A DNA stretch of 64,000 bases, taken from positions 90,148 to 154,147 of the forward strand of contig JAULBX010001558.1 of assembly GCA_032358255.1 (NCBI GenBank). The letters run 5' to 3'. Positions 8,053-63,950 of this stretch are shown piece after piece. Position 1 is the stretch's first letter; each line of letters opens with the position of its first letter. Origin of the DNA: Heterotrichella gracilis (taxonomy: Eukaryota > Sar > Xanthophyceae > Tribonematales > Xanthonemataceae). A program made the translations under genes and the position numbers. The notes under the pieces were generated by a model. That model had not been told where the DNA came from. It did not search any database and saw only the letters and a list, made by a program, of their open reading frames with translations.

Positions 8053-11000
8053 TCATCCAATGAAGCTAAACACAGGGTTGCTAAATCCCACCAGACTCGC
8101 CAGCGCCGTACTTTGCCCCGTCCCCATCCCCAAACCTGCCCCCATTCCCGAACCTGACATCGATCCCTGGGATTGCAGCTGATGCTGCACGAATCCTGCT
8201 GTGGTCACAATGTCATCCAGCTCCCGCCTGAAGCGCTCAATCTCGCTGGTCTTTGCATCCAATGCCTGCTGGTACTGGCGGTGCAGGGCGCTGCTCTGCA
8301 CATAGGGGAGGGGAGGGGTGGGTGGGTGGGTGGGTATCCACGTGGGGAGCGAGATGAGAGGTATTTTTCCAGGGAAAATGATGTCACACATCCAGAGTCT
8401 GGGAATGGCCCAGTGTGCTTGCTTGCCAGGCAATACCACAAATAAATCCCGCACAACACCACCACCCACCTGCACGTCGTACACCTCCTGTGCCCGCCTC
8501 ATGAGCTGGCGCACCTCACCCTCACGGGCAGCCTGCGCACGCTCAAGGGCGCTGACCTGGCGCTCCAGGCGTACAAGCTGCAACACCAAAAGGGGAAGTA
8601 AGAGGGAGGGGGGACAAGCGTAGCGAGAAGGGACCAGGGAGACATAACATGCGCAAGCATACATGGACACCTCATTGGTATAGACGCACTTATGAATGCA
8701 CAGGCTGCAGGTATGAATGCACAGGCTGACAGGATGCGACATCGACTTATGCCATACCAATGTGGCACTGTAAACAAACAAGTTAGATTATTTCAGTTGG
8801 AAAGTTAGTTTGACACTCCACCACCCACCTCCGAAGCCGCCGGCGTCCACGGCGCCCCCGCGCGCGCCCCCCTCAGGTCCTCCTCAAGCATGGCAACCCT
8901 GCGCTGCGCCCCATGCGCCTGCGCCTGCGCCGCATCCAGGCGATCCTGCCAGCGCACCGCCTCCTGGGCCGCAGCCTGCCGCACTGCTGCCGCCAGGTGG
9001 GCGGTGGCCTGTGCCTCGAACAGCTGCAGCGCCTGCTTATGCTGCGCCTGCAGGGATGATGATGGCGTAAAACAAAGCACAAAAATATAAACCAGCAGAA
9101 ATTTATTTACTTTAAAACTGCAAATCAGTGTTATGGGGGGTCGGGGGACTCACAAGGGGAAGGCCCGCTGTACCGGCGGAAGAATCGGTGTTTTTCCCCG
9201 AAAACAAGATTGAATAAACAGCAGGCATGACCATGGCCCATACCGACTCCCCGTGCGCCCTGGTCAGCTAAAACACAAAGAAGCAAAAAACCATTATCTA
9301 CATCTTATACTTATCATCAATCACCTGTGCCTCCTCTGCCCCCTGCACCGCCTCCCCGTGCGCCCTGGTCAGCGCAGCCACCTTGGCCTGGGCAGCACGC
9401 AGCTCCTCCTCAAGCCGCGCAACCACCGCCGGGTCGTGCTGCTGGGGTGGGTGGTGGGGTGGTGGGTGGTGTGTGTGTGCCTCCTCCAGCTGCGCCACCA
9501 GCTTCTCGTTGGCTGCCGACAGCTCCACCACGGTGCGCTGCAGGGAGGCAACCATTTGGGTATCATCGCCTCGGGACGCCTGCGCAATAAGGAGGGCAAT
9601 ATGAGCATGAATGAGCATGTATCCTGCATGTATGAGATTTTTTTCCTGAACAGTTACGTTTTCATTTTCAATCCAATCCAATCTAATCTAAATGACATGA
9701 ACATGCATTAATTTTACTATCAATTCAGTTTCATACCTAAAATGTTCTTTTTTTGCATGCAATCTTGTTTTCAATCTGGTGCTCAATGTCGGTCCCCCAC
9801 TCCCCACCCCACCTGTGCCCTCATCACCCTCAGCTGCCCTTCTGCTGCCGCTAGCTGAGCGCTCATCTCCCGAACCACACCCTCCTTGCGCGCCAACTCC
9901 CGCTCCAGCCGCACCACTTTAGGGTCTCGGCTAGGGTTTGGTTTCCCCCCCTGTGTGGCCCGCAGCGGGTCTCTGTTCTCCCCCCCTGTGGTGGCGCCAG
10001 CCCCCTTGGCTGGCTTTGTGGCCTCCTGTGGGGGATGGGGGTGGGGGTTGGCGGGTTAGGGTTAGGGTTTGGGGAGTTGCGGGATAGGTCAGGGTTTCTG
10101 ACATCCTGTGGCATGGGGGTGAGTGAAGGGCAATGGGGAGATGGTGCCGTGTACATGTATGTGCAGGGTAAGGTTACCACCCAACCCTAAACCTTAAACT
10201 CTAAACACCACCACGACCAACACCAACGCCAACAACACAACAACACCAACATCAACACAACCACCCTCACCCCCCACCTGCAGCTTCTCCTCCAGCTCCC
10301 TCACCCTCCTCCTATGCACCCCCCTTGCCTCCTCCAGCTGGCGTTCCAGTTCACGCACACGGCCCCCGGCACGCCGATTGTGGTCGCTGCTCCTGCACAG
10401 GCGCAAGGCAGGGTGTCAGTGCTGTTAGGTAGGCTTACACAGGATTTCTCAGACGTTCGATTAAATTGATCAATTGATAGGGTGTCGTGGTGAGGTACTT
10501 GTTTAGAGGTTTTCAGATATTGCAAGATGGCGTACGCGCAAAGGAAAATATGTATACAAAAAAATTTTGAAAAAAGGAAAAAAAAGACAACCCACAAAAT
10601 TTAACAGATGCAACATTAGAATGACAAAACCAATTTAATGCCTGCACGCACGATGACAGCCTCCTCTCCATGTCCAGCTTTGCCTTCTCAAACTGCTGCT
10701 GCAGGGCGCGCGCCTGGCGCTCAGCCGCCTCGTCCCGCTCGCGCAGCGCGGCCTGGAGGGAGCGCACACGCGCCTGCACCAGGGGAGGGTACAGGGTGCG
10801 GGTCACCAAGTGGGGAGAAAATGTGGGGGAAAATTGATTTGTACACGAGGCGCATGGTGGAGCAGTGCAAAAGGAGCCTGAAGTTACAATACCATACCGC
10901 AAATTGGGAAATAAAAACCGCTTCTTTCTTTCTTCTTCTTACATTTTACCCTTTTTCTGCTTATTTCCCTAAAGTACCCACTTTGAGCTCTGCCACCGCT

Positions 11001-14000
11001 GTTGTGTCCTCCCCTGCGGCCCCAGCAGGGGGAGGGATGCGGGGAGGAATGGTTGCTGCCACACCGTGCTGCTGCAATGCCTCCTGCATGAGTCAAAGCT
11101 TTACATTCAACCACAACAACCTGTCATGTCAGTCAGCCATTACGGGGGACCATTGCCAGAATACCGCACTGCACTGGGTGAGGCAACCGTTGCACCACAG
11201 TCAGTCATCACAATCACGCGTTACAGTCAAGCATTGCCATCGGGAGTTGCCACCACCCGGGCCCCCACCCACTTACCCTGAGCCCCTCCAGCTCCCTCTC
11301 CAGCTCGCGTATGCGCCTGTAGTGCCCCCCCTTGCCGCTCTTGAGGTCGTACAGCTTGAGGCGCTGCTCCAGGCGGGAGATGGTGGCGGCCTGGTCACGC
11401 ACCAGCTGGTCGTGACGGCCAACAAGCTCCTGGTTGTCTGCGTACCTGAGCAGCCATTAAAAAGTTCACAAGGAGATCCCTGCACCCTCGAGCACCAAGC
11501 CCTGTACCCTGAATCCGTAGGACTGTGTTACATTGTTTCAGTTGGACTGGAGCCTAAAACATTTCTTCAGCTCGAGGGGCTGCTCCAGGTGTGGTGCAGG
11601 CCTGGGTCTTGCGCAAGCTATCCGTGGCGACCAACTAACTCCTGATTGTCAGCCTACCCGCAGGCATCAAACCTTCAAACCAACAACCGTAATCTCCTGG
11701 TTGCTTGCAATCACAATGGCCCTGTGTGCAACAAACCCTAAATCGCAAACCTTACACCCTACCATGCCAGCTTTGCCTGGAGCGCCGCTGCCGCGTCCTT
11801 GTGCCACCTAAGCTAAACCCTACACCCTACACCCTGCACCCTACCATGCCAGCTTTGCCTCCAGCGCAGCTGCTGCGTCCTTGTGCTGCTGCGCCATGGT
11901 GGCCATGTCTGCATGCAGGGACTCAACCTGCTGCGCATACTGCGCCTCAAGCCGCTTGATCACGTCGTCCTCAGCCTGGGGATGGAAAATGTCAGGGTTA
12001 TAGGATTAAGGTGCTGAAGGTTTTGTAGTGTACTGTCTCGAGCTTCATGAGGACATTGTTCTCATCCTGTGGGATGGTTCCTAAGGGTTTGTTTAAGGGT
12101 GCACATACTTGGGTTTATGGCATGCAACTTCCTTAAATCCAGTGCACATCGTGCACCGGGCAATATCATGATGTTACGGTTGCTGGCGAGGGGTATTTGG
12201 TCTGGAGAGGGCATTTTGGTTGCCAACACCCCCCCCACCCACCTCCATGGTTGCCAGGTCCACCCCCCCCGCGCGCGCCTCCACCTCCTTTCTCTCCCTC
12301 CTCAGCCGCTCTATCTCCCCCCTGAGCTCAGCCTCACGTGCACCCGCCTCCTCCCGTGCGGCAGCCAGCTCACCCTCCAGGCGCAGCAGGGAGTGGAGCT
12401 TGGTGGCGGTGTCGGCGGATACCTGCTGGCCCTGCTCCTGGGGGGGTAAGGTTAAGGATTAAGGGTTAAGGATTAAGGGTTTAGGGTTCAACGTGGAGCT
12501 TGCCAGGCTGAGCGTATTGGCCTTGTAAGGGGTGGGAGATTAGTGGCGAGGGTTAGGATTTAGGATATAAAGTGCAGCTTGATGGTGTCGGCGGATACCT
12601 GCTGGCCCTGCTCCTGTGAGGTTTAGGGTCAAGGTTAGGGTGTAGGGTGGTATTAAGGTTCAGGGTTTAGGGTGGAGTTTGGCGGTTGTGTTGGTGGATA
12701 CCTGCTGGCCCTGCTCCTGTGAGGGTTAGAGGACTAGAGGCTGAAAACTAGAGTTTAGCGTTTGAGTCTAGGGTGCTCAAGGCGGAAGATGACAGCGCGG
12801 GAGCCACTGTGGTGGCGCCAGGTGGCGCTTCCACCTCTGTGCAGGTATACATTATCAGTTCTGTGGTTTCGCATACCATAATCCCCACCCACCTGCAGCT
12901 GCATGATCACCCTCTCCAGGCGCACCACCTCCGCTGCAGCCGCCTCCTCCCCCTCCCGCTGTGCCTGCTCAAGCTCCTTGATGCGGCGCATGGCAGACTC
13001 GTTCTCAAGCTGCGCAACACCCCAGCAGGATGAGGGATTGGGCCTTAGGGTTTGAGCCTCAGGGTACTCACTGTGCAGCATCCTATCAGGATTAAACTTT
13101 AGGCCTAATGTAAAACAAATTGTTTAATCTATAACCTGGCCCATCCCCAGGCCCCACCTGGTACCCCTTCATCAGTGCCTCCTGCTCCTGTATGTCCCGC
13201 CTTAGCTCCGCAAGCTCCTCGGGTCCCACCATCAGCTGCTCGCCGCTGGCCAGCACACGCGCGCGCACCTCGTGCCCAGACAACGCCTGCGCCACGGGGT
13301 GCGGGGGAGGTTGCAACATGAGCATGCGGCACGGCACCAGGCTGGCATTGGGCAATTGGGTATGGCATTGGGCATGGAGCAGAGAGACTTTCAAAGAATT
13401 GCATATAAAGGAAAAGTAAAAGAGAGGCCACTAGTTTATTTTAACACCGTATACCGTTATTTAGTTAAGGCGTTAGAATAGCGAGTTTTACGCCATGGGC
13501 AGGGGTCAGCATGGCAGGAGGCTTACCAGGACCTGATAATAAGGACCCATTGCCCTTGAACTGGAACCGTATTAAAGGGTCCTGCCCCAACCCCCACACC
13601 CACCTGCACCTGCGCCTTGAGCATGTTAACCTCCTTCTGCTTCCTGGCCAGCTGCCCCTCGTAATGCTCCTTCAGTTGCCGCTCCCGCCGCTCGCCCTCG
13701 CCCACCGCAGCTGCATGGCGGGCACAGGCACCGCGCCGCGCCTGGGTCTGAGATTGCAACCTGGACTTCAGCTCTGCCACCTGCACCAGATTACCAACCG
13801 TCACACATGCCCCAGCGGGAGCATGGCATTGGGGTAAGGTATGCATGGGATGCTACAGGTCTTGGGCTGTCAAGCTGTCTGGGTCCAGTGCCAGCACTAG
13901 ACCAGTCTGAGGGCAGGTTTGTAGTTTATTCTGTATATCTGGATCATTGCGTGTTGATGCTACGCCGCCTTCTGCATGCTTTTGGCTTTGGACCCCCCCC

Positions 14001-17599: not shown

Positions 17600-18199
17600 G
17601 CTCTGGTAGACTAGATGGGAAGGTGGAGTTGCCTCGTGAACCTTCCCACGAGCCCACGAGGCAACTCCCAGTGTATGTGGACCCATGCTCCCCCCCCCAG
17701 AGCAGCAGAGATCTGCTGAGCACCCACGCATGTGTTAACGCTGTGGTGGTGTGCGTGTGACAGACAGACACAGCCTCGGCGCCCTCCACTTGCGCAGCAC
17801 CCGCCAGCATTGCGGCGGATGCAACGTTGATTGGCCCCAAGTTCTTTGAAGACCCTCATTGAGCCGCTGTGGCGGTGGCATAGGCTGGATTACTGCCCTC
17901 GCATTGTATGTGTATCCAGGGACCCCCAATGGGCAGCAGCAGCAGCGCGGCAGCCCCCACGATTGCGCAGAACTGCACCCACTATCGCGGCACTGCTCAC
18001 CAGCGCGCTCGACATGTGCGGCATCCGATCTACGCCATCAAACGCCCATTTGTTTACCCCTAGTACCTCATTGAGCCGGCGGTGGCCAAGGCTGGGCCGG
18101 CGGCCTCGCAGTGTATGTGTATTCAGCCCCCCCCCATGGACAGCAGCACCCATCAGGTGCTGTAGATCACTGCTGGACACCCGCTCACGCACCAGCTGC
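17600..18199 (-). repeat. Three decayed tandem copies of the last exon of the 18200-19790 gene
   Basis: Units starting near 17866 and 18070 begin with the same CATTGAG block as the real exon at 18203, and a more scrambled unit lies at 17620-17860. The 17866 unit still reads through the second membrane span and reaches a stop at the same relative position, but an upstream TAG replaces the Lys codon. The copies therefore look like pseudo-exons in the 3' flank. Confidence 0.7.
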
Positions 18200-19790
18200 T
18201 CATTGAGTCGCTGTGACAGTTGCCAAGGCTGGGCCGGCGGCCTCGCAGTGTATATGTATCCAGGGCCCCCCCGTGGGCAGCAGCAGCAGCGCCGCAGCCC
18301 CCATGATTGCGCAGAACAGCACCCACTTGCGCAGCAGCTGCTCGGCGCGCTCCACCGCATCCACCCCCGCGCTCCGGATGGCCCTGTCCAGAATCACCTC
18401 CATATCATCCATGTTCTCCTGCAGGGGCAATGATAATTAATAAATAAATAAGAATAAAAATTGGCGCTGCCCCGCTGTACCACCATGTGACCCCATTCGG
18501 CAGCAAGCAAATTTCACCGAGTGATCCATATCAATCCATCAACCTGTGCTGCCATCTTACTGAATAGAGACGTGTAATGTACAAGTAAGGTTGAACCCGG
18601 TCAATCAAATCTAGGGTATTGAAGGTCACCGGTGTTGACCCCTAAACCCTAACCCCAAAACAAGCCACCCTGGAAGTTTCAGAATCTGGCCTGCAACAGG
18701 TCGCATTGGCCAACCATTACTACTTCTGCTCAAGCATTGTTGGACCACCACTGTACCCCAGATTCCTCCACCCACCTCAAACTTGGCCGCCATTTCCCTG
18801 ACCTCGTCCATCACCCCCTGGCGCATGCGGTCATACTTGCTGGCGTAGGGCTTGAGGAACCACTCGTCAATCTTCCTGTTCACCAAACGCTTCTTCTGGG
18901 CGGGGCGACGCGCGGGCCGCACATGGCCTCTTATCCCTGTGTAGGAGATAAAATCAATATAAATTTAAATCAATTTTTAAGTTGACCACAAGACTTCTGT
19001 TAATTGGTGGTACTCGGCATGGCCCATGCGGCAACGATGCTCCTCGTCTTTGTCCTTCCCAAGAATGCTGGCTCTGACCATGTTCAACCTCCCTTCCAGT
19101 GCAAAGGCAACCCCTTACCTGTGCACGGGACGAACCCCTCGAGGCCCGCGTCTGTGGTCTGCGCAGGCTCCCCTAGGACCGTTGGGCCAGCTCCAGCTGC
19201 ATTGCATGCCCCATGGCCCCCACCAATTGCCTGGGAGTACTGTGAGCCTTGGGCAGGGAGGAACAGCCCAGACGCTGCTGGCCCTGCGCGCACCATACAT
19301 CAGTATACCGCCCAGACTTCATAGGTAGACTCGAAGGTACACTCATGGTAGATCAGGTAGAGCCCTAGGAGGCCCCAGCGCTGTCTGAAGATTTAAGTTT
19401 CAAGGTCTATCGGTTAGGGTTAAGCACCTTGTGCCGCCACAGCTGCTTGCCCGCACGTGGTTGGCCCTGACCACCCCGTGTGCACCATTTAGGGTTTAAT
19501 TTGTCAGAGCTTGGGTTCGTAGGGTTTAGGGTATAGGGTTTCACACCTTGTGACGCCACCGCCGCTTGTCTGCGCACGTGGTCGGCGCTGGTCACTCCAG
19601 GCGCAGTGCCCCGCCAGGTGTCGGCTGCACGCTGCCTGTCTCGGTGGTAGCGTGCGGTTTTGGAGTCATACTCGTTGATGAGGTACAGCCACAGGAGGGC
19701 AGCCACCAGGCCAAAGGCGGAAACCCTAAGGAGGGTGTAGAACGCCGTGAGGAGGGTCCAGCCGGTGCCCAGGGCGAGGCCCAACGCCAT
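18200..19790 (-). CDS. Two-membrane-span protein of unknown function
   Basis: Four exons (19790-19547, 19283-19119, 18936-18776, 18418-18200) join in phase to 262 residues, ATG at 19788-19790, TGA at 18200-18202. Residues about 8-42 form a long hydrophobic N-terminal span ending in LLWLYLINEYDSKTARYHRD. Exon 2 is Gly/Ala-rich and probably unstructured. Exon 3 is strongly basic then helical (RPARRPAQKKRLVNRK, WFLKPYASKYDRMRQG). Exon 4 has an amphipathic helix and a second span (VLFCAIMGAAALLLLP). I do not recognise a family. The sequence suggests a small membrane-anchored helical protein of ER, mitochondrion or plastid. The last exon is the one copied several times just downstream, so the exact 3' end could be different. 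Confidence 0.68.
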
Positions 19791-48312: not shown

Positions 48313-51300
48313 ATGCGGGGAGCGGGAGGGGCATCCAGTGTGCTCAGCGATCTGCCGCCAGAAGTGCTGGAGCCCTTGCTAGCGTGAGTGCTGGCAAACC
48401 CTACCTTATGGTTGGAACTGCGCAATGTTCAGGGGAACCTACCCTAGGGCATCGAATGTGCTGAGCGATGTGTTGCCAGAGGTGCTGGAACCCTTGCTAG
48501 CGTGAGTGCTGGCAAAACCTCAACCCTAAACCCTAATCCCTGAACCCTAAACCAGAGGTGCTGGAGCTGTTGCTAGCGTGAGTGCATTAAAACCCTACCC
48601 TTGGGCTTATAACCCTTCTTCGCTACGAGCGGTCACCCTTTGGCTACGAGCTGCACATTGTTTAGAGCAAACCCTACCCTAGGGCACTCCATTGCATGGA
48701 TGAAGGTAAAAGCCTACTCTAGGGTCTCTCGCATGTTCACATCCCTTGGTACGCCGCCCACACCCACTGCGATATTACCCCCCGTGGCATTCCTCACCCT
48801 GTTTTCCCCTCAGCTGGCCCTTGGCAGTGATGATATTACATTCACCTTGGAGAACTGAAACCCACATGAGTGAGACGTCTTTTGACAGAATGACTGAGCC
48901 AAGGGTCAATGGTGGGAAGTCAAAGCATTTGTTATACGTTTTCTCAACAAACATGCTCTCCTTTTACAAACCGCTGCATGCTCGTTCTGCCTGTATTGTA
49001 AACCCTAGCTGCTCTGGGAGCAAAACCCTAAACCCTAGCCTCCCCCCTTCCAAATCGCAGGCAGAGCAAGCATGAGCGCCACATCATCGGGGTGGGGAGC
49101 GAAGAGGGGGGTGAAAACGAAATGGGGGGGACGCGCAGGGGGGCGACAACAGTACAAGCCATTTTCAACCTGGTAAGTCCCTGCGGCAGGATGTCAAGAA
49201 CCCTAGTTGTATCTACTACTGGCTGGTCTCATTCACGCACCCCTTTGTGCCCCGTCCTCCATCCAGTGACCGAGCCAGTTACAAATACTGAGCCCACTAT
49301 GTTTTATTTCACCCCTTTCCCTTCCTCCCCCTCCAGGTCAACATTTACGTTGGCATCGGCTTGCTCACCATGCACTATGCGCTCAAGCTGAGTGGGTGGG
49401 TGGGATTTGGACCCCTGCTGGCGGTGGTGGTCACATTTGGGACCACGGGGTATTTGCTGGTGCAATGCCTGGACAAGGTGCCCATCAATGTGCCCCACAG
49501 CTACCCTGAAATAGGTGCGCACGAGTGCCCTTGGGATCCTAAGTCCTTTTACAGCATTTACAGCATGCCCGCGGTATGATACCACGGGCAAGAACGCACA
49601 GCATGTGTAGCACTGGCACTTGTAAAAACAATCCTCCCGTGTTACTACCTACGCATCTTGCATTATGAGCAATGCGAGACGAACACTATCCCCTTGTGTG
49701 TGAATGCAGGGGGTGTTGCGCTGGGAGTGAAGGGGAGGTACCTGGTCACTGCTTTTGCCTTTCTGGAGATATTTGGCAGCTGCTGCCTGGCTATCATCGT
49801 GCTCATCAGGCAGCTGCAGGTCATACTGCCAGCGCAAGGTGAGTACATGAAAAAATGGGGAAGTCAACAGTGGCATGGGAGTGTGATGTTGGCATTTTTG
49901 GGTGAATTGTAGCTCATGGAGGTCATAGGTATCTTGTCAGGCAGTGGTGAAGTGAGAGAAAATGGGCTTTGGCAGCTGCTGGCTAGCTATCCTTGTGCTT
50001 ATCAGGCAGCTGCAGGTCATACTACCCGGGCAAGGTGAGTAAGGAAATGTGGTTGCCATTTAGGTGGAATGTGTGCTGCCATTTGTTCAAGGGGGGTTCC
50101 ATGCGCTCATACTGTTGCCTCTTCAGCTTTAACGGGTACGTGTACGTGTTATCGCCAGGTGACCCTCACACACCCTCTAGGATAGGTTGAAACTCTCCTG
50201 AAAACGTTGCAATACGGCCCCTCACTATACCCCCCCCCCCGATTTCACCACCTTGACCTTCACTCCCCTTTTCAATCCCCCTGTTCATCCCATTCATCCC
50301 CCCGTCCCCCCTGCAAGGCACCACAGTGGTGTAATAACAACCCCTTTCCATCATTTGCCTGTCCAACTCCTACCCCCATGTGTCACATATTAACACCCCC
50401 TCTTCCCCCCCCCTCTTGCAGCCCTGCTATTGGGGGTGCACATGCAGACCTGGATCACCGCACTGGTGCTGCTGGCAATTGTGCCCCTGCTGCTCATACC
50501 ACATTTGAAACACATTTCGTGGCTGGCGCTGGCGGGGGTGCTGTCCAATGTCATGGTCATCGGCTCGGTGGTGGCATGCGTGGCACTGGATCCCCACAGA
50601 ATACACGCGATCCCCAGGCACCAAGAGGTATGGCTGCTCTTTCCATATCAACAGCTTCGTCTCTCCATGTCATCCTTAAGGTTGTGTTTGCACAGATTTT
50701 CTTGAAGTTTTGTGCTGCTGCTGCACTGCGTGCAATGCCAAATGGGCGTACATCCTTTGCGGAACCCTGACCCTGAACCCCAAACTATAAACCCCTACCC
50801 CCCGGGGGTGCTGCGTCTGTCCACCATAGTTGAACCCGAGTGCAAAAACAATTCTGGGGTCCACAAACTATTGGTAAACCACTGCATGCAAATACAACCT
50901 TTCCTCTCAACCACACCCACCCACCCCCCTCCCATTTCTTGCAGGGCCAGCCGCCCCCCGGCCACTCCCTTGCCCACTGGGGTATCTTCCAGGCCATCGG
51001 CATATTTGCTGTCTCCCTGTCTGGACACTCCACCCTCCCCGCGCTGCGCTCAAGCATGCATGCACCCCGCCACTTCCCTAAGGTGCCCGCCAACACCCTC
51101 AACCCTAAATGCAAAGGTGTTGCAAACTGAATCCCTACCATGCACCCTCTGCATGCATGTCTGGCCTGCGTCCCAAATGTGCCCGCCGATCTCCAGATCG
51201 CGTTTGTCTTTGGCTCGGCAGGCTCTGCTTCATTCTGCTTGACAACGTCATGCAGAATGCACCCCTATACTTTGTCGTGCAATTGTACCCCCAGCTGCTT

Positions 51301-54300
51301 TCCCTGTTTGTTAAGCCTGACGTAGCAGGTCTGTCATTTTGGACATTTTTTTATATTATAAACCGGAGTCAGATGTGATATGTTTTGATAGAACAACACT
51401 TTTGCGTGTGTGTGACCCCCCAACCATTGCCATTTCAGGTGCTGGCCATCTCCTTTGGTGCAATGCTGGTGGTGTACGGGGTCACTGCTGGGCTGGGATA
51501 CTACTATTTTGGGGATGGCGCCATGCAGCTCATCCCCGACGATTTTGCGCAGCATTCTGTGTTCAGCGGGGATTGGCTCCTCATCCCGGGGCTGACGCTG
51601 GATCGGGTGATGGCGGCCTGCATCGCCATGCATGCCTACACCACCTACCCTGCCCTCATCCTGGTGCTGCAGGTACGTGGGTAGGGTTTAGGGTCATGTT
51701 CTAGGGTTCAGGATTTAAAGGTAGGGTTTTAAGGTCATGTTTTGGTGCGGCCTGCATCGCGATGCATGCCTACACCACCTACCCTGCCCTCATCCTGGTT
51801 CTACAGGTACGTGGCTAGGGTTTAAGGACACATTCAAGGGTTAGGTTGTAGGGTCATACTCAAGGGGTGGCATGCATTGTTTGCGTTTCTACACTACAGT
51901 GGCAGCAGCCACTCAGCCTCTTGCTGCAGCTGCGCAATCATGGTTACAATACACAATCAAACCCCCAAACGAATAAATAGTGCCAGGGTGGAACTATTTG
52001 GCACGGCGGTTATGCACTCTCAGGCATGCATTCGTATGCAAGCATTTACGCAATGCCGAGCACTCTCAGGCATGCATTCGTATGTGAGCATGTACGCAAT
52101 GCCGAGTACCTCCCAGCGGCACTCAAATCACAGGTAAGCACTGCTCTCCCCGCTGGGAAGGGGCAAAGGTGGTATCTACAATTTAGTCCTATATCTGCCA
52201 CAAATTTAACCTAAACCCTCAATCCAAGTGGTACTCTCGCCAGCACACGCCATAGCACAGGTTGACATCTCACTCCTGGCAGATCAGCTTGGTCTGGCCG
52301 CATCCCGGGGACATTTCAATGGGGGGCCCAGGTGTGCCGCTGCCCCTTTTCTGCCGCCGCTTTGCGTTGCCACAATGCGCGCACCTATAAAGAATTCGAA
52401 CATTTCTTGGTACATAAACATATTACAGTAACATACATGGTTTATTACACCATTGGCAAGCAAATTGCTTTATACGGTCTATATGATGTATAAAGTAATC
52501 CATATGTATTGTTTCAATGAGGAGTTACTTACTTTATATGGTTTTTGTATATATAGTTAATTACCCAGTCAGACTCCTCATAATGAGATACCCGTTGTGG
52601 CTCTTACGGGGCATAGGCACCATGCTGTACGTGGGGATGGGCAGCATCCCTGTAGCGGCCAAGCGCGTCCATATGCAAAGAACAGCTACTCACCGTGTGC
52701 AATAATACGCAGCTTTGAGGTGAAAAGGAAAACAAAGGCTTGTTTTTAAAAGTAATGAAGTGCGCACACCTCCGGGCTTCCCTCTCGTCGGGTGTGTGGA
52801 TTGCATCTTGCTGCTGGGGGGATACTGGGTGGGGTGGTAGGGGGGCTGCGGGTGCAGTACCTGGGATACAAATGGACATTAACGTGAGATTAGCTTCAAC
52901 GTCCAACTTGGGGATGGAAGTTAGAGATAAAATCGAGGTTGGATATGCAAGTTGCAATCCAATTTGAGGAATAATTCCATCTCATCCGCATTCCCGCCAT
53001 GCATTTCAACATCCACGGATGCATCATTCACTTCAATCTGCAAATGAAAAGTACAGTACCTGAGGCGGGTGCAGGACCTCGCCTATTGTTACCTCGTTAC
53101 CCTTGGCAGGTTGGCAGATCACCTATAATTCAAGTAGGTCAAGCCTATCAAATAGTATAAAGTACTAATAAAGTACGGTACCTGGCGGCTCCAGGCGCTC
53201 TGCCAGTTGCACCATGTCCTTGCTCAGCTGGTCAACCTCACGTGCATCCAGGTCTCTGACAAGGTTGTTGCGGAAATTGGGTAGACCGGGCGTGACCCTT
53301 GCCAAGACCAGGCTGTATAGCGGCCGGAGGGACTGCAATCTGTGGTGGGGTGGGCAGTGTCAGGGTGAAACGGGGTTTTTAGCGGTCAGGGTTTGATGAA
53401 CGGTGGGTGAAGGGTTTTTTTAAGGGTTAGGGGTTCCGCGGGGGGTGCATCGGGTTTTCTAGAGGTCAGGGGTTTGATCACGCTGGGTATTTGGGGTGAC
53501 GTGGCAGGACTAAGAGGGTGGGATGGTTTGCAAATGGCGATTTGGTGAAGTGTTTCTGGGGACAAGATGATGACACCGGCAGGTTGGAAAGGGGTTTTGG
53601 AAGGGCAAGGGTTCGATCCTCTGATGAGCTGACATGGGTAGCACTACTGACAGTGACAGGGGTGAGGTTTATGGTTTAGGGTTTTTGGGAGGGCAGGGGT
53701 TCGATCCTCTGCTGAGGTGGCATAAATAGCACTTGTGGTAATGTCACTGACGTGGAGGTGTAGGGTTTAGGGGTTGAACGCGTACCCCTGGGCGGTCACC
53801 GTGCCCAAGGCCTGCCACCTCACAAATGTAGGGGAGCGAAGCATATGTCGAGGGGCCGTGGGTTCGATCCACGGTGGGGGTGGCTTTAGGACCACTGCCC
53901 TGGTGCAACTTGAGGCACACACCCTCCCAGTGCAAGGCTGAGTGCTACATTGCTAAAATCACATAAGTAGCTATGTATATATACACACTTCCTACCCCAA
54001 TTAAATGAAGGCGCTAGTGGCAAACAAACATAAAGGCAGATACTTACTGACTGTGGCGTTGGCTGCCCAGTGGTGGTGGCGTCCCGTTCACAGAGTGCAA
54101 GAAACGGGTGACCATGCACAACAGCTGCTCGGAACGCTCCAACGTCAGCTGCCGCACCACGAAGTCGTGCTGGTAGCACGCCGACCAGTAGTCCTCCGTG
54201 TCGTGCATGGCTACCACCCCATGTACAGCAGCACGGCCACGAGCCTGGCCACCTCCCCATGCGTGCATGCCTCCGAAGGGGTTGTGGATGCACCTGTGGG

Positions 54301-55699: not shown

Positions 55700-56771
55700 T
55701 TTGGTCCCAGGCCAGCGCAGACCATTCCCCAGCTCTCGGGATGTTTCACGCGAAACAATTGGGCTATGAATAGCTGAAGCAGAGCTATCACCAGCTCTAG
55801 GAATCTTTCTTCCACACAGAAATGGACCTCCCCACCCTGGAGCGCTGCACTGCACGTTATGCTAGGGATGGCTATTGTTATTGTTTTGTTAGACATGACA
55901 GTGTCTGTTTATCGATGACCGCTTCTCAGACTGGCAGGGCACTTTACAGTAATTGGTACATGTACGTACATCGCCCTTGTCAATGACAACAACCGGTACT
56001 CAGTACAGTCTGTACCTAGCTTGGGTCCCCAGTTTGCTGCTGGTTTTGGGGCACAGCAGTTGAGCACCACTGGAAGCTGTTTTCCTTTCTTTCCGCTCCA
56101 GAGCAATTTTGCTTGTGGTCGTGGTTGAATGCCCATTGCGCCCCTGGTTTGTTGGCCCCACTTGACTGCAACAGTTGACAATGTGGCACGTGCTGGTTTC
56201 CTTGTCCCACGTCAAACTTTGCAGGCACTTGCATTTATTTCCAGCCAGTGGCACACAATTTTCAATTTCTTCTTTCAAGAGGCAGTGCAATTATTGCAGA
56301 TTAACACACCTTCGGCATGGCATACAATCAACCATTTGTCAAGTTGACAGTGCCATGCTGACGACCAATGGCATGGGCTTCCCGCCAGCTGTTGCGCCTA
56401 AACAGCCCTTTCAGGGAGTCTACATGAAATCCAGGTCACCACTTTGTACCCTGATTGAATTTATCATGACCTTTTCTGAGCTCATGAGAATCGATTCTAT
56501 CGTCGCAATGGTCACTCACTGAGAGGCTGAAACCTTCATACATGTTACACGTGTCATGAGTCGTACGGCAGGATTTGCAAACCCTACCATAACTGAACCG
56601 GTGGTCCTCTAACCATACAAAATATCTGCCTGCAGCTGTGTGGTACAACACATTTTCCCCCCTTTTATTCCATAGTAGTACTGCCCTGTGCCACCAGGTG
56701 GCTGTCTAGCCCCCCGGGACACCAACCCAATGCCAAACAAGCATTGCAATGCCCTGAAAATACCCTGGTCT

Positions 56772-56826
56772 TGTCCTGGGATGTACCAGGGTATGTTCAG
56801 GGCATGCCCTGGTACATCCCAGGACA
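56772..56826. repeat. Long perfect inverted repeat (hairpin)
   Basis: Arms 56772-56791 and 56807-56826 pair perfectly over 20 bp around a 15-nt loop. GC-rich (TGGGATGTACCAGGG core). It could be a small-RNA hairpin or the tip of an inverted-repeat element. Confidence 0.85.
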
Positions 56827-57579: not shown

Positions 57580-57655
57580 CCCTCAGAAGGCCAGCTTATC
57601 CGCACCCAGATCTTCCAGGCTCGCATGCCCCTCTCCCCCATTCTCCCTGCACCAC
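57580..57655 (-). repeat. Duplicate of DCAF11 3' coding end
   Basis: Repeats about 57776-57850, including the stop region and the GGCCAGCTTATCCGC segment, with about ten changes. The CAC triplet tract at 57647-57680 follows. Confidence 0.85.
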
Positions 57656-57777
57656 CACCACCACCACCACCACCACCAGTATCCCAGTGGTGGAGAGAAG
57701 CAACCCCTCTTCCCACAGAAGCACCGCCGCCACCATCACCATCACCACCGGTATCCCAGTGGTGGCAAGAGGCACAG

Positions 57778-60700
57778 TTAGAAGGCCAGCTTATCCGCGC
57801 CCAGATCCTCCAGGCTTGCGTGCCCCTCCCCCCCTTTCTCCCACAGCAGCACCGCCCCGTCAAAGGCAGTGGACACAAACAGGGGCAGGTGCGGGTGCCA
57901 GGAGCAGTCCCGCACCACCTCCTTGTGGTAGCGCAGCTGCCAGGCTGGCAGGCCGGTGACCAGGTCTGCAGGGAGGAACAGGGAGGATCTAGGGTATGGA
58001 GGGAAGAACACGGGTTTTACTGAGGGTAGTGTGGTCCTTGGACTGCACAGGGTTTCATTAGGGTTCATAAGGCCAGGTACACGTAGCGCTGCCACATGAT
58101 TTGGGGTTTTATTAGGGTCTTGGTAAGGCTTGCACCGTACACGTGCACCGCCCCGTCATTAGACCCGTGCACGCACAGCCCTGCCCCGTGATTTAGGGTT
58201 TTGTTAGGGTTTTGCTAGGGTCTCACCATACATGTGCACCACTCCATCATTAAACCCATGCACACACAGCCCTGCCCCGTGGTTTAAAGTTTTGTTAGGG
58301 TACTCACCATACACGTGCACCGCCCCGTCATTGGACCCCGTGTACACGTAGCGCTGCCACATGATTTAGGGTTTCACTAGGGTTCTGGTAGCGTTCACTA
58401 GGGTTTTGGTAGGGTACTCACCATACACGTGCACCGCCCCGTCGTTGGACCCCGTGTACACGTAGCGCTGCCCCGTGGACTCGGCAGGCGAGAAGTAAGC
58501 CCTCACTAGGGTCTGGAGCACCGCGTGTCCCCTCAGGGTCATGACCGACACATCATGGGGGTGGCGCACGCGCCTGCCTCGGTCGGGGTAGCTGTGCCAG
58601 CGGTAGTCCCTACAAGGGTTTTGCAGGGATTTGGTTAAGAGGAGACAAGGCAGGGGGCTGTACCAATGGAAGGGTTTGGCTTGCGATGCGAGTACAAACC
58701 CTACGAAACCCTACCGATGCCATGCTACAGAGTACAACCCCCGCCACAGTAGCCTGGCATGAGCCCTCCCTGTCACTGTACCCTATCAGATTGGGACCTT
58801 TGGGACCTTTGGGTTGGGCAGCTGTGCGTGCGCCTGGTGCGAGCACCAAACCCTAACCAAACCCTAGGAAACCTCCAAAAAGAACCCTTCAAACCCTACA
58901 AGATGTCACGGAAACCTCGCCTCCAGAGGGCACCAACACTGCCATACGGCCCCAGGCCCTTACCAGTCAAAGGTGGGGATCTTTGGGTTTGGCAGCTGCA
59001 CGTGCGCCTGGTGCGAGCATAAAACCCTAACAAAACCTTAACAAAACCGTACCAGTCGAAGGTTGGTATCTTGGGGTTTGGCAGCTGCACATGCGCCTGA
59101 TGCGAGTACATCTTTCGAATGTCCCACAGCTTGATGGTCTGGTCCTTGCAGTTGGAGATCAGGTAGCGCCCGTCGCCCTGGACAAGGACAAAGGGGAAGG
59201 GGTCATGTAGGAGGAGGGTCGAGGTTAGGCATGGAGATGTGTTGAATATTGCCCCGTGTGATTATGTGCTCATGTAAGAAAAGTAGGAGGTACATGCAAT
59301 CCAGCTGTGAAGCCAGGGTAGGTAGCATGCCTGGGTACCCATCACCCCACTCGAGGCTTGTCTGACACAGTCTCCAATATGTGAACAAAGTCCCATGTGA
59401 CATGTGGCCCCATGTGCCCATATGAATGGGTCCCCCATGTGGCCCTCTAACCACACCATTTGGTGGGTCACCACCCACCCATCGCCCTGTATGCCTTCCC
59501 CGCCTTGCTGTCCAGGCGCGCCCGCCATTGACCCTAGAATTTCAAAAAACCGCACCATCCAGACCCACCGTCTGTCCACCGTTGAGTTTCAGCGGCACGC
59601 CATAGGCAAGAACAATCACCCGACATAATCCCCCCTTTTCCCCCATAACAAAGACCACCACTTCACCACCACTCCCACCACCCCCACCACCCACCTTGCT
59701 GTCCAGGTGCGTGAGCCCCTCCGTGTGTCCCACAAGCACACCAGCAGGGGAGTGGCTGGTGCCAAAGCACCGTCGGTCCCACACCTGCGGAGGGGGATGG
59801 GAATCATTTACCCAATTGCCACACCACCAACAGACTTCCAGCGTAGGAAAGTGCGTTGGGCTTCTTAGTGGCTAAGATTTCGTGTCAGTTGCTAGGGTTT
59901 TGGGGCAGCTTATGAAGCGGGGGGTTTGCTGTGTGTCCCAGCCCAGGATGCTTGTGAGTACCCTATTAAGGTTTGCATGGCTATTAGGTTTGCAGGCAAG
60001 CGGGGCGCACCAGAGCTGGGCGGGATTTGGGTCCTGATAGGGTTTTGCGTATAGAGTTTTCCTCACCTTGATCAGGTGGTCGTCACTGGCTGAGTACACG
60101 ATGTTGGAGGCCTCGTCAGCAAAGGCCACCGAGTTGATGTCGTCGGAATGCGCCTCAATGCGGGTGGTCCTCTGGGGGCAGGGGGGAAAGGGCCACAATC
60201 AGGATAACGAAATTGATTGTCTACCATTATATGTGGGTGGACCATTGGCGTGGGGTCAGGAATAGAAGCGCACATGAGGGGGCGGGCATGCATGTGTACA
60301 TTGGGTTACCATTGGCAGGGCACTACCCGTCACCACAGAGATATTGCCTGCTGCCGCACAGCTTCACACCAAGCCCTAAAACCTTAACCCCTGCGCATGG
60401 AGCGGAGACCACATGTGCCCAAAACGCTAGCCCTGGACCCTTCCCCGCAGTGCCTCCACAGCGTAGATACACACACTGTTGCCCCCAGTCCCCACCACCA
60501 CCACCCGGTTGTCTGTCTGTCACTCCAACACTTAGACAATATGCCAAAAATGGAGGTAATGGCACCCCCAAAACCCTCATAATATAAGCCAAACCCCAAT
60601 GCTGTCCACTCACCCGCTGCGCCTCCAGATCGTCGATGTACATAGAACCCTCATACTAAGCCAAAACCTAGCCCTGCCCTCACAATCTACCAAACCCAAA

Positions 60701-63700
60701 CCCTAGCCCTCATATTCTGCCCAACCCTAACCCTGCCAGACCCTAACCCTCATACTATCTCAAGCCCCAGCCCTCGCGCCTTACCCGCTGCGCCTCCAGA
60801 TCGTAGATGTACAGGCTGTTGTCCCCTGTCCCCGCAACCACCTCCCGGTTGTCGGCGCTCCATTTTATGGACCAGATGCCAAAGCTGGAGGTCATGACTC
60901 GATCGCCCGCCCCTACAAAGTTGAGCGGCTCGTGCACGTCGGTCACGTTGGCCTCGCTCTCCACGCTGCCCCAGGTCTCCACACCCACGTTCACCTGCAG
61001 GGGGGTGGGGAGGGTGCATGGTGGTGAGGGGAGGAAAGAGGTGGGTGGTGTGTGGGTGGTGGAGGATACCATGTGCACCAATTGGGTACAAGGTGGTAGA
61101 GGGGGGTATGTGTCACAGTTGAGCGGCTCGTGCACATCTGTCACGTTGGCCTTGCTCTCAATGCTGCCCCAGGTCTTCACACCCACGTTCACCTGCAAGG
61201 GGATTAGGGTTTAGGGATTGGGGTTTAGGGTGGCCTTGCTCTCCATGCTGCCCCAGGTCTGCACACCCACGTTCACCTGCAGGTATATTATGAAACAGGG
61301 TGAGGAAAGCAGGTCTTGACCCTCAGGCCCTAAATAAAACCTTCCCCCAGCTCCCTGCCCCAAAGACCAACCCAAAAATTAGCAAGTCGCGTGCATCAGC
61401 CCAGTCCCAGAAGCCCTAACCAAACCCTGCTGCCAACCGCGCACCATGTGCACCACCGGCGTGATTGACGAGTAGAGCAGGAACCGCTGATCCGGCGACA
61501 GGCAACTGACTTTGACGGTCAAAATTTGACCCTCAGTCACACCCTCGAAAACCCCAAATCCCGACCCGACAATTAGAAGGCCATGTGTATCAGCCCCGCC
61601 CCAGAACACTTGACCCAACAACCCAACCCCCCACCCCGCACCATGTGCACCACCGGTGTGATTGACGAGTAGAGCAGGAAGCGCTGGTCGGGCGACAGGC
61701 ACGTGTCTGTCACCGTCCACCTCAGGTTGCGCGCATACACGTCCTTCTTCATCTTGAACCCGCTGGCCACGTGGTACATGCGGATGCGCCGCTGGTGCTG
61801 GAACGCGGCTGCGCGGTGGGGTTAGGGTTTTGGTCAGGTGTTGAATTTGGTAGTGGAGGCATGCATGCGGGCGCCCAATGGGAACAGGGTAGAGGTTAGG
61901 GTTTTTTGGGAGGCCATAAGAGGGTGTGAAGTGCACGTCCTTCTTCATCTTGAACCCACGTAATACATGCAGACACCGCTGGCCCTGGAATGAGGATTGA
62001 CATGGGGATTGCCGCAGGTATGGTGGGGTTCTGGGATAAAGGAATCAGGCTTGCCATGGGCAGCCATGGGGTACGGTGCAGATGCAGCATGTCCAATGCG
62101 CAAATAGATACTTCTTTTGGCAATGGCCAACATTCTACAGGGTGTGGTACATGCGGATGTGGCGCTCATCCCACCCACCAGGGACATGCGTCTGTGATGC
62201 ATATTTTGCACATGCGCAGATTAATGGTGTATCAGCGCCGCCATTAACAGTGTCAGTTAAGCCTTGGCTCTAGGACTGGGTTGAGGCATACCCAGACATG
62301 CTAACCTGGCTTCAAAGCTGGAACGCAAATAGAGAGAGAGAGAGAGAGAGCGCCGCCCGCACGCACCCACAAAGAAGCTCCCCCCCTGCGAGAACTGCCC
62401 TATGTACGCCCTGCTCTCCATTTGGTCGATGAGCTTGGTGACGTGGTTGGGCACAGCAGTGGAGATGGTGATGCCGCGCTGCTGGGAGGGGGACAGCTGG
62501 CCGGAACCTGGGGACAAAGTATGATTAACATTTGCATAAATTGCATGAAAGAAGAGGGCAGAAGAGGGCAGATAATGAACAATGGGAGCTTTTTCTCAAG
62601 TGAGTATGGTGACAACAACAACCATTAACAAAGCTACCTGAAGGAACGAGCAAAACCCGGCCATGGCAAGAGCGACGCGAACACAATTGTTCATGAAATG
62701 GTTTCAAAACATTTATATTCGGCCTCACAAAGACCTGCACCCGCACCTGTCAGGTTTGCTTGGCGCGCCAGCAGCATGTGGGTCACGCTGGGGGGCGTCT
62801 GGAGGCGCAGCAAGGGGGGGGAAGCGGAGGTGGACGCAGCGGGGGGCGGTCTCTGCAGGAGCCAGGAAATCATGTGGGTGTGAGTGTGGTGGTGGTGGTG
62901 TGGGGGTGCAGGATGGGGTGCAGGATGGAAGGGGGGACAGAGGGAGCATTTTTGGGGATTGCGAGCTTCTCTGCCACTTGCGCGCTTGCAACATCGGCAC
63001 CAAGGCCAGCCATGTAAACACTCCATTCTCTGTGGCATGTCTGGCATGCCCCGCACAGCACTGGTCGCTGCTCTACCCACCCCAGTCGCCATAGGTAGAG
63101 GCGGCATGCATGAAATCCTGGCCCAGTGGTGTGTGGCGCGGGGGATAGGTTTTTATTGCGGGGCAGGGCGGTGCAAAATGTGCGTGCTATACAACAAGGT
63201 GGGCATTTTAACCCGCATGCAGTGTGTGGCATGCAATCATGACAGAGCCTGCCCAACACACCTGTGTGGGCCACTGCCGGTGGGTGTAAGTGGCGGTGGC
63301 GCATACCGACCTCATGGTGTGTGGGAGCGCAGTGCATGCTACATATGCGCGCTATGCGACATCGCAACAAGGCCTACGGTGGCCATTCCAACCCCACATG
63401 CAATGTATGGCATGCAGTCATGCCCGCCACCATGCCCCCCCCAGCCCGCCCTCACCTGCGTGGCCCGCTGCCGGTGGTCGTAGGTGGCGGTGGCGAGTAT
63501 CAACTCCTGACCCAGGTCGGTGCCGCCGGTGACCAGGGGCGACAGGCGGGTGGTGGCGGGGGCGCGCCCATCCACAAACGTGGGGCCGGGCGTGGGGTCG
63601 CCCCGCCGCGGCCGCTCGTCCAGCAGGTCGTCCGCGTCGCCGCCACTGGCGTCGCTGCCGACGTCCTCGTCGGACCCCTGCTCCTCGTCGCTCGTGCTGG

Positions 63701-63950
63701 CATCCATGGCGTCGGCATCCCCGCTGGAACCGAACGCGCTGGAGCCGTCCCCTATGTCGCTATCGCTGTCGTCGTCGTCGGTTTCGAACCCGGAGCTTCC
63801 CTCCTCGTCGCTGTTGTCCATCGGGATGGCAGGGGCCGCACCCGGGAGCCGCGCGAACCCGCCGTTTGCAAACCCCGCCCGCAGCTGTGCCATCACCTCT
63901 TCCGGGATGTCGGCAAGCCCCAGGGGGTCCGCCTCGCGGGCGTCCGCCAT
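57778..63950 (-). CDS. DCAF11: DCAF11 (WDR23) WD40 substrate receptor of CUL4-DDB1
   Basis: Ten exons, transcription order: 63950-63456, 62852-62747, 62507-62367, 61808-61642, 60994-60785, 60171-60067, 59784-59695, 59177-59053, 58609-58422, 57965-57778; phases agree, 604 residues. Residues 1-165 are acidic and Ser/Asp-rich; the WD40 propeller follows. Family blocks in order: YIGQFSQGGSFFVGA, IRMYHVASGFKMKKDVYAR, LSPDQRFLLYSSITPVVH, EAHSDDINSVAFAD, VYSASDDHLIKVWDRR, GHTEGLTHLDS, YLISNCKDQTIKLWDIRK, LRGHAVLQTLVRAYFSP, then WHPHLPLFVSTAFDGAVLLW. The WDRR and WDIR sequences are DWD (WDxR) boxes that bind DDB1. The animal homologue (DCAF11/WDR23) targets NRF2/SKN-1 for degradation. Nuclear or cytosolic. 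Starts at the ATG 63950, just inside a run of G at the window edge. Confidence 0.94.
58075..58369 (-). repeat. Four tandem copies of DCAF11 exon 9 donor edge
   Basis: Partial copy 58075-58097, then 58128-58196, 58222-58290 and 58303-58369 repeat the end of exon 9 and donor (58420-58478). Units are about 90 bp and joined by GATTTAGGGTTTTGTTAGGG-like filler. Confidence 0.9.
58778..59025 (-). repeat. Two copies of DCAF11 exon 8 donor edge
   Basis: 58778-58850 and 58955-59025 repeat 59047-59107 (the GGCAGCTGCACRTGCGCCTG segment and donor), each next to AAACCCTAAC-type sequence. Confidence 0.88.
60425..60645 (-). repeat. Two copies of DCAF11 exon 5 donor edge
   Basis: 60425-60548 is a diverged copy of about 60785-60890, and 60605-60645 is a short, closer copy. 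Between them and the exon lies a long CCCTAACCCT-like run (60650-60780). Confidence 0.8.
61117..61282 (-). repeat. Two copies of DCAF11 exon 5 acceptor edge
   Basis: 61117-61201 and 61230-61282 repeat the beginning of exon 5 with its acceptor (60927-61001). A GGGTTTAGGGATTGGGGTTT filler lies between them. Confidence 0.9.
61438..61520 (-). repeat. Copy of DCAF11 exon 4 donor edge
   Basis: Repeats 61639-61710 including the GTGCGG donor; the last ~20 bp diverge. A further scrambled partial copy of the same exon is at 61930-61990. Confidence 0.88.
62262..62326 (+). repeat. Dispersed ~60-bp element, copy 3 of 3
   Basis: Shares TTGGCTCTxGGACTGGGTTG and the following GAGGCATACCCAGxCATGCT core with the copies at 16948 and 35821. 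Lies in a DCAF11 intron. Confidence 0.85.

What the first reader, a model, noticed from the sequence alone, without database searches (positions are those of the whole stretch)
8053..63950. Introns built from repeated local copies of exon edges
In at least six genes (CEP162, the two-TM gene, FAN, dihydropyrimidinase, the transporter, DCAF11) introns contain partly diverged copies of the adjoining exon end or start, usually including the real splice donor or acceptor. I counted roughly thirty copies of 25-120 bp. The four genes NIT2, ATAT1, the secreted-protein gene and TMEM230 seem free of them. This is a recurrent structural process, not chance similarity, and it plants decoy splice sites next to true ones. 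I know of no standard name for it.
Basis: partly seen in the sequence, partly recalled or inferred. Interest (0 to 1): 0.85.

Follow-up and report, generated by a model that had tools for sequence, protein, structure and literature searches.

The report
Exon-edge copies beside telomere-like repeats
In this alga many genes carry, just outside the ends of their coding segments, slightly decayed copies of those very ends, often beside fragments of telomere repeat, which looks like a scar of DNA repair at the borders of coding DNA.

Summary
With gene models from an HMM trained on this genome, a copy of the adjoining exon end or start lies in the neighbouring flank at 52 of 373 donor and 32 of 389 acceptor edges, against 0 in other-gene, reverse-complement and shuffled controls (score >=40). 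Of 59 gapped direct repeats at >=85% identity, 50 include exon, 6 are intergenic and 3 intron-intron; random placement predicts 15.5% exon-containing. Copies reach the exon edge in 74 of 81 cases and stop a median 7.5 bp beyond it. The same border appears at 5 of 31 stop codons, so it is the end of coding sequence, not splicing itself. Copies decay about neutrally. Per gene they track telomere-type repeats in introns (rho 0.75, 53 genes). Best reading: short repair or template-switch duplications (edge - filler - edge), kept when the junction leaves coding sequence. Why coding edges are favoured, and what the telomere repeats do, is unresolved. No outgroup, RNA or reads were available.

The parts
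9242..9268 (-). copy of exon end (source 9347-9373), CEP162
   Evidence: 96% over 27 bp; the source stops 22 bp short of the exon edge at 9325
11568..11657 (-). copy of exon start (source 11352-11445), CEP162
   Evidence: 79%
11763..11804 (-). copy of exon end (source 11845-11886), CEP162
   Evidence: 90.5%
12571..12613 (-). copy of exon start (source 12392-12437), CEP162
   Evidence: 95%; a second copy 279 bp from the edge
17855..18013 (-). copy of the last coding exon end with stop codon, downstream of the two-TM gene (source about 18199-18355)
   Evidence: 81% over 160 bp; stop-edge test
19428..19477 (-). copy of exon end (source 19547-19598), two-TM gene
   Evidence: 82%
29777..29843 (+). 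copy of exon end (source 29603-29669), FAN; the copy is itself called an exon by the HMM
   Evidence: 95.5%
29972..30028 (+). copy of exon end (source 29787-29843), FAN
   Evidence: 77%
30432..30502 (+). copy of exon end (source 30236-30306), FAN; tandem unit of 196 bp next to an assembly gap (N 30648-30747)
   Evidence: 98.6%
30748..30787 (+). third related segment beyond the assembly gap, FAN
   Evidence: 92.5%
31521..31552 (+). copy of exon end (source 31402-31433), FAN
   Evidence: 97%; one search shows it
35412..35482 (+). copy of exon end (source 35232-35302), FAN
   Evidence: 94%; homology ends 5 bp past the donor
36259..36312 (+). copy of exon end (source 36068-36121), FAN
   Evidence: 91%
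39056..39095 (+). copy of exon end (source 38961-38997), FAN
   Evidence: 89%
43192..43244 (-). copy of exon start (source 43018-43070), dihydropyrimidinase
   Evidence: 89%
44696..44747 (-). copy of exon end (source 44811-44862), dihydropyrimidinase
   Evidence: 90%
45244..45300 (-). copy of exon end (source 45494-45550), dihydropyrimidinase
   Evidence: 95%; second, more diverged copy 45335-45401
48447..48501 (+). copy of exon end (source 48329-48383), transporter
   Evidence: 85.5%
49968..50034 (+). copy of exon end (source 49772-49838), transporter
   Evidence: 88%; homology ends 7 bp past the donor
51747..51806 (+). copy of exon end (source 51613-51672), transporter
   Evidence: 95%
57585..57662 (-). 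copy of the last coding exon end, downstream of the DCAF11 stop codon (source 57780-57856)
   Evidence: 86%
58321..58358 (-). copy of exon end (source 58435-58472), DCAF11, in a tandem cluster 58073-58478
   Evidence: 97%
60445..60513 (-). copy of exon end (source 60785-60853), DCAF11
   Evidence: 81%
61114..61192 (-). copy of exon start (source 60916-60994), DCAF11; called an exon by the HMM
   Evidence: 91%
61231..61276 (-). second copy of the same exon start, DCAF11
   Evidence: 96% to 61147-61192
61445..61520 (-). copy of exon end (source 61642-61717), DCAF11
   Evidence: 87%
61934..61990 (-). copy of exon start (source 61738-61803), DCAF11
   Evidence: 89.5%
63262..63301 (-). copy of exon end (source 63456-63495), DCAF11
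   Evidence: 85%

Best explanation
These are scars of short DNA duplications made during repair (or replication restart) in and around coding DNA. The typical product is P-Q-X-Q'-R: a coding-sequence edge Q (about 30-100 bp plus a few bases outside) is present twice in direct orientation, separated by a stretch X of about 60 or 120 bp that was unique in the genome where tested and often holds telomere-type repeats. A staggered break filled in on both ends, or a polymerase that slips back and re-copies the edge, would give this. An event whose junction falls inside coding sequence breaks the gene and is lost; one whose junction falls a few bases past a donor, before an acceptor, or past a stop codon keeps the protein intact and stays. 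The outer copy is then free to decay, and some pairs grow into arrays by later unequal exchange. Shown: the anatomy, orientation, border rule, near-neutral decay, gene-level link to telomere repeats, some arrays of even period. Inferred: breaks or fork stalls as the cause, the order of events, X as filler, unequal exchange. Not explained: why coding edges are hit far more than intron interiors.
For: Edge copies 52/373 and 32/389 against 0 in three controls. Outer limit at or beyond the CDS edge, to within 12 bp, in 74 of 81, and between 2 bases before and about 16 bases past the stop codon in the 5 stop-codon cases, as expected if the insert sits at the outer end of Q and must leave the CDS. 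Donor bases +1 to +5 are kept (match 93, 91, 88, 73, 86% against 100, 98, 53, 28, 66% for random intron pairs) while acceptors keep mainly the last three. Substitutions at codon positions 1:2:3 = 116:96:239 (reciprocal pairs counted twice), and 17 of 19 indels in the 56 copies not called exons are not multiples of 3. X found only at its own place, 3 of 3 queried genome-wide. Telomere heptamers cover 23% of X in the short-offset class (28 pairs) and 7% in the long one (37 pairs) against 2.9% of introns; the genome's own telomere is CCCTAAA. Copies per exon correlate with intron telomere-repeat cover, rho 0.75, p 9e-11, 53 genes. Several of 22 multi-copy edges have an even period, e.g. 113/233/348, 221/442, 194/386. 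Literature: telomere-repeat insertion at staggered breaks with target duplication and random sequence (PMC7215372, passages); proximal repair duplications (PMC2671141, abstract, first part of Results and passages); Pol alpha-primase/CST tandem duplications (PMC8355091, abstract).
Against: Neutral random duplication plus purging predicts mostly intron-intron pairs (84.5%), but 3 of 53 were seen, so a bias to coding DNA must be added without a known cause. The outer limit lies closer to the edge than random placement allows (median 7.5 against 25 bp). In 10 of 45 donor and 5 of 29 acceptor pairs the ungapped homology stops less than 5 (donor) or 3 (acceptor) bases past the edge, so there X itself must supply the splice site. 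If telomerase had extended both broken ends, repeats should run G-type on the left and C-type on the right of X; instead C-type in sense orientation prevails on both sides at acceptors and next to donors, and is mixed at the donor-side inner junction. For gaps of 96 bp or more the telomere signal at the inner junction is weak (8 of 45 against 7.6% background, p 0.018). Among the 53 pairs with homology ending within 12 bp, 23% still show similarity in the repeat-masked flanks above the 95th percentile of unrelated pairs, so part of them may be plain tandem duplications. In 22 edges with two or more copies the nearest was more similar in 13 and the farther in 8, so no clear order of insertion. 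No empty site was seen.
Confidence: 0.5

Rival explanations
1. Telomere-repeat-anchored template switching: a break inside a telomere-type repeat in the intron is repaired by copying the nearby exon edge until the new strand reaches the repeat beside that edge and anneals back to the broken repeat.
For: Repeats sit 10-50 bp inside both intron ends; edges with copies have them more often (40 of 81 against 122 of 681, OR 4.5); repeat orientation agrees between real edge and copied edge (17 of 20 informative), real edge and inner junction (18 of 20), copied edge and inner junction (14 of 16); 18 of 29 short-gap inner junctions carry an exact heptamer.
Against: The copy's outer limit does not track where the repeat starts (rho about 0, permutation p about 0.7); long-gap cases have few repeats at the inner junction (8 of 45); 15 of the 53 pairs with a limit within 12 bp have no repeat hexamer at any of the three places.
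Confidence: 0.15
2. Ordinary tandem duplications spanning the exon-intron border, whose intron half has simply diverged beyond recognition.
For: Long alignments of tandem units exist (23, of which 13 span exon-derived and other columns); some residual flank similarity in pairs with short limits.
Against: In those alignments non-exon columns keep 83% identity against 88% in exon-derived columns pooled (they were picked for being alignable, and the exon figure includes one purely coding repeat at 76%), so flanks of 90-96% identical copies should still align; yet homology stops abruptly. Intron-intron pairs are nearly absent.
Confidence: 0.12
3. Copying defined by the transcript or the spliceosome, with splice-site-marked RNA serving as template.
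For: Copies end a few bases past splice sites, strong preference for exon edges.
Against: The same border rule holds at stop codons, where no splice site exists (5 of 31, one of them in a low-complexity GAGGAG stretch). In the cases read, the next exon does not follow the copied donor, as it would in a spliced template (the latter cut).
Confidence: 0.06
4. Intron gain by tandem duplication of an AGGT-bearing exon segment (Rogers model) or by mobile introners.
For: Local duplication of exon segments with splice sites is the hallmark of the first.
Against: In the Rogers arrangement the copy of the exon end abuts the acceptor: 1 of 45 copied donor edges lies within 20 bp of a called exon start. 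Introners are multi-copy; X was unique in 3 of 3 genome searches, though 44 of 74 X had some match at E <= 0.01 within 324 kb, those shown being local copies, telomere-like or simple stretches.
Confidence: 0.05
5. Functional alternative exons or assembly artefacts.
For: 25 of 81 copies are called exons by the HMM, with 1 indel among them, a multiple of 3; two young repeats abut N gaps (window 30648-30747, L015 from 6105).
Against: 17 of 19 indels break the frame in the uncalled copies and the codon-position pattern is near neutral; median identity 91% with indels and no reverse-complement edge copies at score >=40 do not look like assembly duplicates.
Confidence: 0.05

Closest known systems
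Repair-mediated duplication by capture of proximal DNA (PMC2671141; abstract, first part of Results and passages seen)
   Same: Short local copies of nearby sequence with filler at junctions; exons and splice sites can be copied.
   Different: In human 824 proximal events were found and the authors say virtually any sequence can be affected; one copied exon named there lies in the opposite orientation. Here edge copies are direct, end at coding-sequence borders and are common per gene.
Insertion of telomere repeats at double-strand breaks in mammals (PMC7215372; passages seen)
   Same: Telomere repeats, random sequence and direct duplication of the target at a staggered break.
   Different: There 3 of 66 horse loci had duplication alone (2 more with deletion and addition), and the 31% of human loci in introns was judged compatible with random insertion; here repeats cluster 10-50 bp inside exon edges and go with exon-edge copies.
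Pol alpha-primase/CST small tandem duplications (PMC8355091; abstract seen)
   Same: Duplication by fill-in of break ends; the complex is, from recall, also the telomere C-strand fill-in machine.
   Different: Products there are described as tandem duplications; here a gap of about 60 or 120 bp separates most copies.
[quoted passage not shown] passages seen)
   Same: A duplication across an intron-exon border; in potato it made a new intron.
   Different: Here the copies lie inside existing introns or after stop codons and no new intron is shown.
Plant telo boxes (PMC3022908; passages seen)
   Same: Short AAACCCTA motifs inside genes; the authors propose telomerase acting at free 3' ends in open chromatin.
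   Different: In Arabidopsis introns 150.7 per Mb against 155.2 genome-wide; here 1459 per Mb in introns, 473 in intergenic and 89 in coding DNA, both strands counted.

Membership tests
Repair-mediated proximal duplication | Donor and copy within 5 kb, not retroposed | tested here: met
   Edge copies were sought within 1 kb and found at offsets 75-442; self-comparison to 2.5 kb gave 3 of 181 direct pairs beyond 600 bp; the copies read show no joined exons; poly(A) was not scored
Repair-mediated proximal duplication | Filler, deletion or microhomology at junctions | tested here: inconclusive
   Gap sequence X of 38-384 bp lies between copies, but junctions cannot be polarised without an outgroup and microhomology was not scored
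Repair-mediated proximal duplication | Empty orthologous site | not testable with these tools
   No relative of this genome is held
Telomere-repeat insertion at breaks | Inserted repeat matches the organism's own telomere | tested here: met
   Contig C717 starts with 32.9 copies of CCTAAAC; intron repeats are the same heptamer
Telomere-repeat insertion at breaks | Repeat strand orientation expected from extension of broken 3' ends | tested here: not met
   C-type prevails at three of the four junction classes and the fourth is mixed
Rogers tandem-duplication intron gain | Copy of the upstream exon end abuts the acceptor | tested here: not met
   1 of 45 copied donor edges within 20 bp of a called exon start
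Introner | Multi-copy dispersed element | tested here: not met
   3 of 3 gap sequences found only at their own place; 3 of 74 gaps were queried in the whole genome
Tandem repeat array | Copies adjacent with homologous spacers | tested here: inconclusive
   True for a subset (23 long alignments), not for most gapped copies
Duplicated functional exon | Copy under coding constraint | tested here: not met
   17 of 19 indels not multiples of 3 in 56 uncalled copies; the 25 called copies had 1 indel, a multiple of 3, so some of these may be functional

The most novel reading that the evidence does not exclude
This alga has a mutational process directed at the borders of coding sequence: breaks or stalls at coding ends, associated with telomere repeats, that repeatedly copy the border outward by preferred distances near 110 and 192 bp (the second close to a nucleosome repeat, from recall). 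It would be a distinct route by which introns lengthen and splice-site look-alikes multiply.
Probability: 0.25. Interest if true: 0.9.

Novelty: new variant of a known kind. Interest (0 to 1): 0.73.

Why it matters
How introns lengthen and where cryptic splice sites come from is usually inferred from rare events. Here one genome shows dozens of half-decayed events in 314 kb that can be ranked by divergence, with a clear border rule and a gene-level link to telomere repeats. It makes testable whether telomere-type repeats promote local duplication, and whether coding DNA is broken or mis-copied more often than the introns beside it. It also warns that gene finders will call many of these copies as exons (25 of 81 here).

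Tried and rejected
Rogers-type intron gain (copy should abut the acceptor): rejected. Introner or other mobile element: X unique in 3 of 3 genome searches; within 324 kb 44 of 74 X had an outside match at E <= 0.01, those shown being local copies, telomere-like or simple stretches. Functional exons: rejected for most. Fast intron divergence as the cause of the abrupt limits: weakened, with the caveat that its alignments were chosen for being alignable. Telomere-anchored annealing: its specific prediction failed. Splice-site- or RNA-defined copying: weakened by stop-codon copies. Nearest-is-youngest order of copies: 13 to 8, no support. Intron length and intron GC do not explain which genes are affected, and GC3 shows only a weak trend (rho 0.26, p 0.06). 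Rfam scan of the window: 0 matches. tRNAs: 0. RuBisCO_large search: no match, not informative since plastid DNA may be missing.

Limits of the data: 28 stretches of 10 kb were fetched. L009 was dropped (36% GC, bacterial-looking) and L014 (all N); L034 stayed in the 27-sequence set before I saw that it is also bacterial-looking, but no gene was called in it, so it adds 0 edges; repeat cover was recomputed without it. Gene models are ab initio, without RNA evidence. The 81 edge hits (score >=44) and the 74 edge-reaching pairs include reciprocal counts where the copy was itself called an exon. Start codons gave 0 of 24.
Full report
What was examined. The window is contig C18:90148-154147 of a 68.5 Mb, 903-contig genome. 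It is a photosynthetic eukaryote (43 chlorophyll a/b-binding matches); its telomere repeat is CCCTAAA, seen as 32.9 copies at the start of contig C717. I fetched 28 more 10-kb stretches, dropped two (L009 low GC and bacterial-looking, L014 all N) and trained a gene-finding HMM on the remaining 26 plus the window (531 exons, 469 introns; donor consensus CAG|GTG, acceptor TGCAG|G). One of the 26, L034, later proved bacterial-looking; no gene was called in it. Of eight window models or parts given to Pfam, six matched a family (CN_hydrolase, Amidohydro_1, Aa_trans twice, WD40, and Beach at 3e-102 for a part of FAN); the two-TM model and the model at 52607-55034 matched none; the CEP162 and secreted-protein models were not submitted.

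Is it real. For each exon edge I aligned the 100 bp of exon inside it with the 1 kb outside it. At score >=40, 52 of 373 donor edges and 32 of 389 acceptor edges have a copy in their own flank; 0 of 3 x 762 other-gene flanks, 0 of 762 reverse complements and 0 of 762 shuffled flanks do. The flank on the far side of the exon gave 10 of 373 and 16 of 389; I did not examine these one by one, and they may come from short exons lying wholly inside the query and from copies called as exons. Later steps use the 81 hits with score >=44 (49 donor, 32 acceptor).

Anatomy. Edge copies are direct. Local repeats of every kind are mostly but not wholly direct (54 of 60 in the window; 62 direct and 15 inverted in stretches L009-L028). 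Donor bases +1 to +5 are usually carried along, beyond what the consensus explains; at acceptors mainly the last three bases are. In 10 of 45 donor and 5 of 29 acceptor pairs even less is shared. I saw no common motif at the inner limit (by eye). Between the copies lies X, with offsets in two groups, 110 +- 15 and 192 +- 20 bp (two components better than one by 22 BIC units for offsets up to 260). X was found nowhere else in the genome in 3 of 3 searches.

Not a matter of chance placement. Among 59 gapped direct repeats of at least 85% identity and 35 bp, 42 are exon-part (at least 10 exon bases), 8 exon-exon (a copy also called an exon), 6 intergenic (4 of these also touch a called exon) and 3 intron-intron, although introns are 53% and coding exons 29% of the 314 kb. 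Random placement of the outer end in introns gives 15.5% exon-containing; 50 of 53 observed. Faster loss of intron pairs hardly explains this: in 23 long alignments of tandem units, exon-derived columns are 88% and other columns 83% identical pooled; these were chosen for being alignable, and only 13 hold both kinds of column.

Fate of the copies. Substitutions between exon and copy fall 116:96:239 on codon positions 1, 2 and 3 (reciprocal pairs counted twice), about as expected if the copy is neutral and the exon changes mainly at silent sites; 17 of 19 indels in 56 uncalled copies break the frame. GT remains in 38 of 45 copied donors and AG in 24 of 29 copied acceptors. Copied donors score a little below real ones (median 7.45 against 7.82, p 0.015), copied acceptors clearly below (4.69 against 8.62, p 0.03). 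So splice-site look-alikes are indeed planted. Whether they are used cannot be said without RNA.

Beyond splicing. Of 31 stop-codon edges 5 have a copy downstream whose homology ends between 2 bases before and about 16 bases past the stop codon; one of the five lies in a low-complexity GAGGAG stretch. Of 24 start-codon edges none has one; controls 0. The border is therefore the end of coding sequence. This argues for a DNA-level event filtered by selection and against copying defined by the spliceosome.

Telomere repeats. Exact telomere heptamers cover 2.9% of introns, 1.0% of intergenic and 0.3% of coding DNA, and in introns they concentrate 10-50 bp inside both ends. Within 8-68 bp of the edge the cover is 13.2% at 80 edges with copies, 5.6% at 348 other edges of the same genes and 2.1% at 418 edges of genes without copies. 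Per gene, copies per exon and repeat cover correlate (rho 0.75, 53 genes); intron length and GC do not, GC3 shows a weak trend (rho 0.26, p 0.06). Copying can itself multiply repeats, so cause and effect are open. At the inner junction, which has no splicing role, 26 of 74 have a heptamer within 30 bp against 114 of 1508 control windows in the same loci and 3 of 74 on the exon side, but this comes mainly from short gaps (18 of 29) and less from long ones (8 of 45).

Interpretation. The simplest product that fits is P-Q-X-Q'-R, a short duplication with filler inserted at the outer end of Q. Such products follow staggered breaks or polymerase slip-back, and in mammals telomere repeats and random sequence are known to be inserted at breaks, sometimes with a target duplication (PMC7215372, passages). 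Selection then removes events whose junction lies in coding sequence. Two facts remain outside this account: the strong preference for coding edges over intron interiors, and the two spacings. I tested one way to link repeats to the border, that the copy ends where the telomere repeat begins, and it failed.

Novelty. Paper searches for intron gain with tandem duplication, filler and patch-mediated duplication, introners, interstitial telomere repeats and introns, partial exon duplication and decoy sites, and border duplications with intron length listed no paper that, from the titles and abstract starts shown, describes this pattern; only open-licence papers are held and for the longer lists only the top was shown. 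I file it as a new variant of repair-type local duplication, not as a new category, because an ordinary repair origin is the most likely.

Noticed in passing
L009 (C1:50001-60000) and L034 (C100:40001-50000): Bacterial-looking contigs in the algal assembly: long intronless ORFs, low GC in L009; from recall the proteins look like Bacteroidota. Probably a co-cultured bacterium.
   Followed up: partly
window 55115-55696 and 48313-51815: The small gene at 55115-55696 matches the C-terminal part of Aa_trans (profile 318-405) and the transporter model matches 2-270, so both may be one gene with other exons missed.
   Followed up: partly
window 3072-3414, minus strand: ATAT1 (Acetyltransf_16) exons, missed by my HMM.
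   Followed up: partly
window 30648-30747: 100-base N gap inside a cluster of near-identical FAN copies; copy number there is uncertain.
   Followed up: no
window 41727-41774, 56749-56826, 6236-6282: Short palindromic inverted repeats.
   Followed up: no
window 54218-54847, minus strand: ORF of about 210 codons in the 52607-55034 model without a Pfam match; its acidic Ser/Asp-rich part recalls transposase-like ORFs (recall only).
   Followed up: no
window 24559-24875: Coding repeats at offsets 66, 177 and 210 bp (all multiples of 3) within one FAN exon, of another kind than the edge copies.
   Followed up: no
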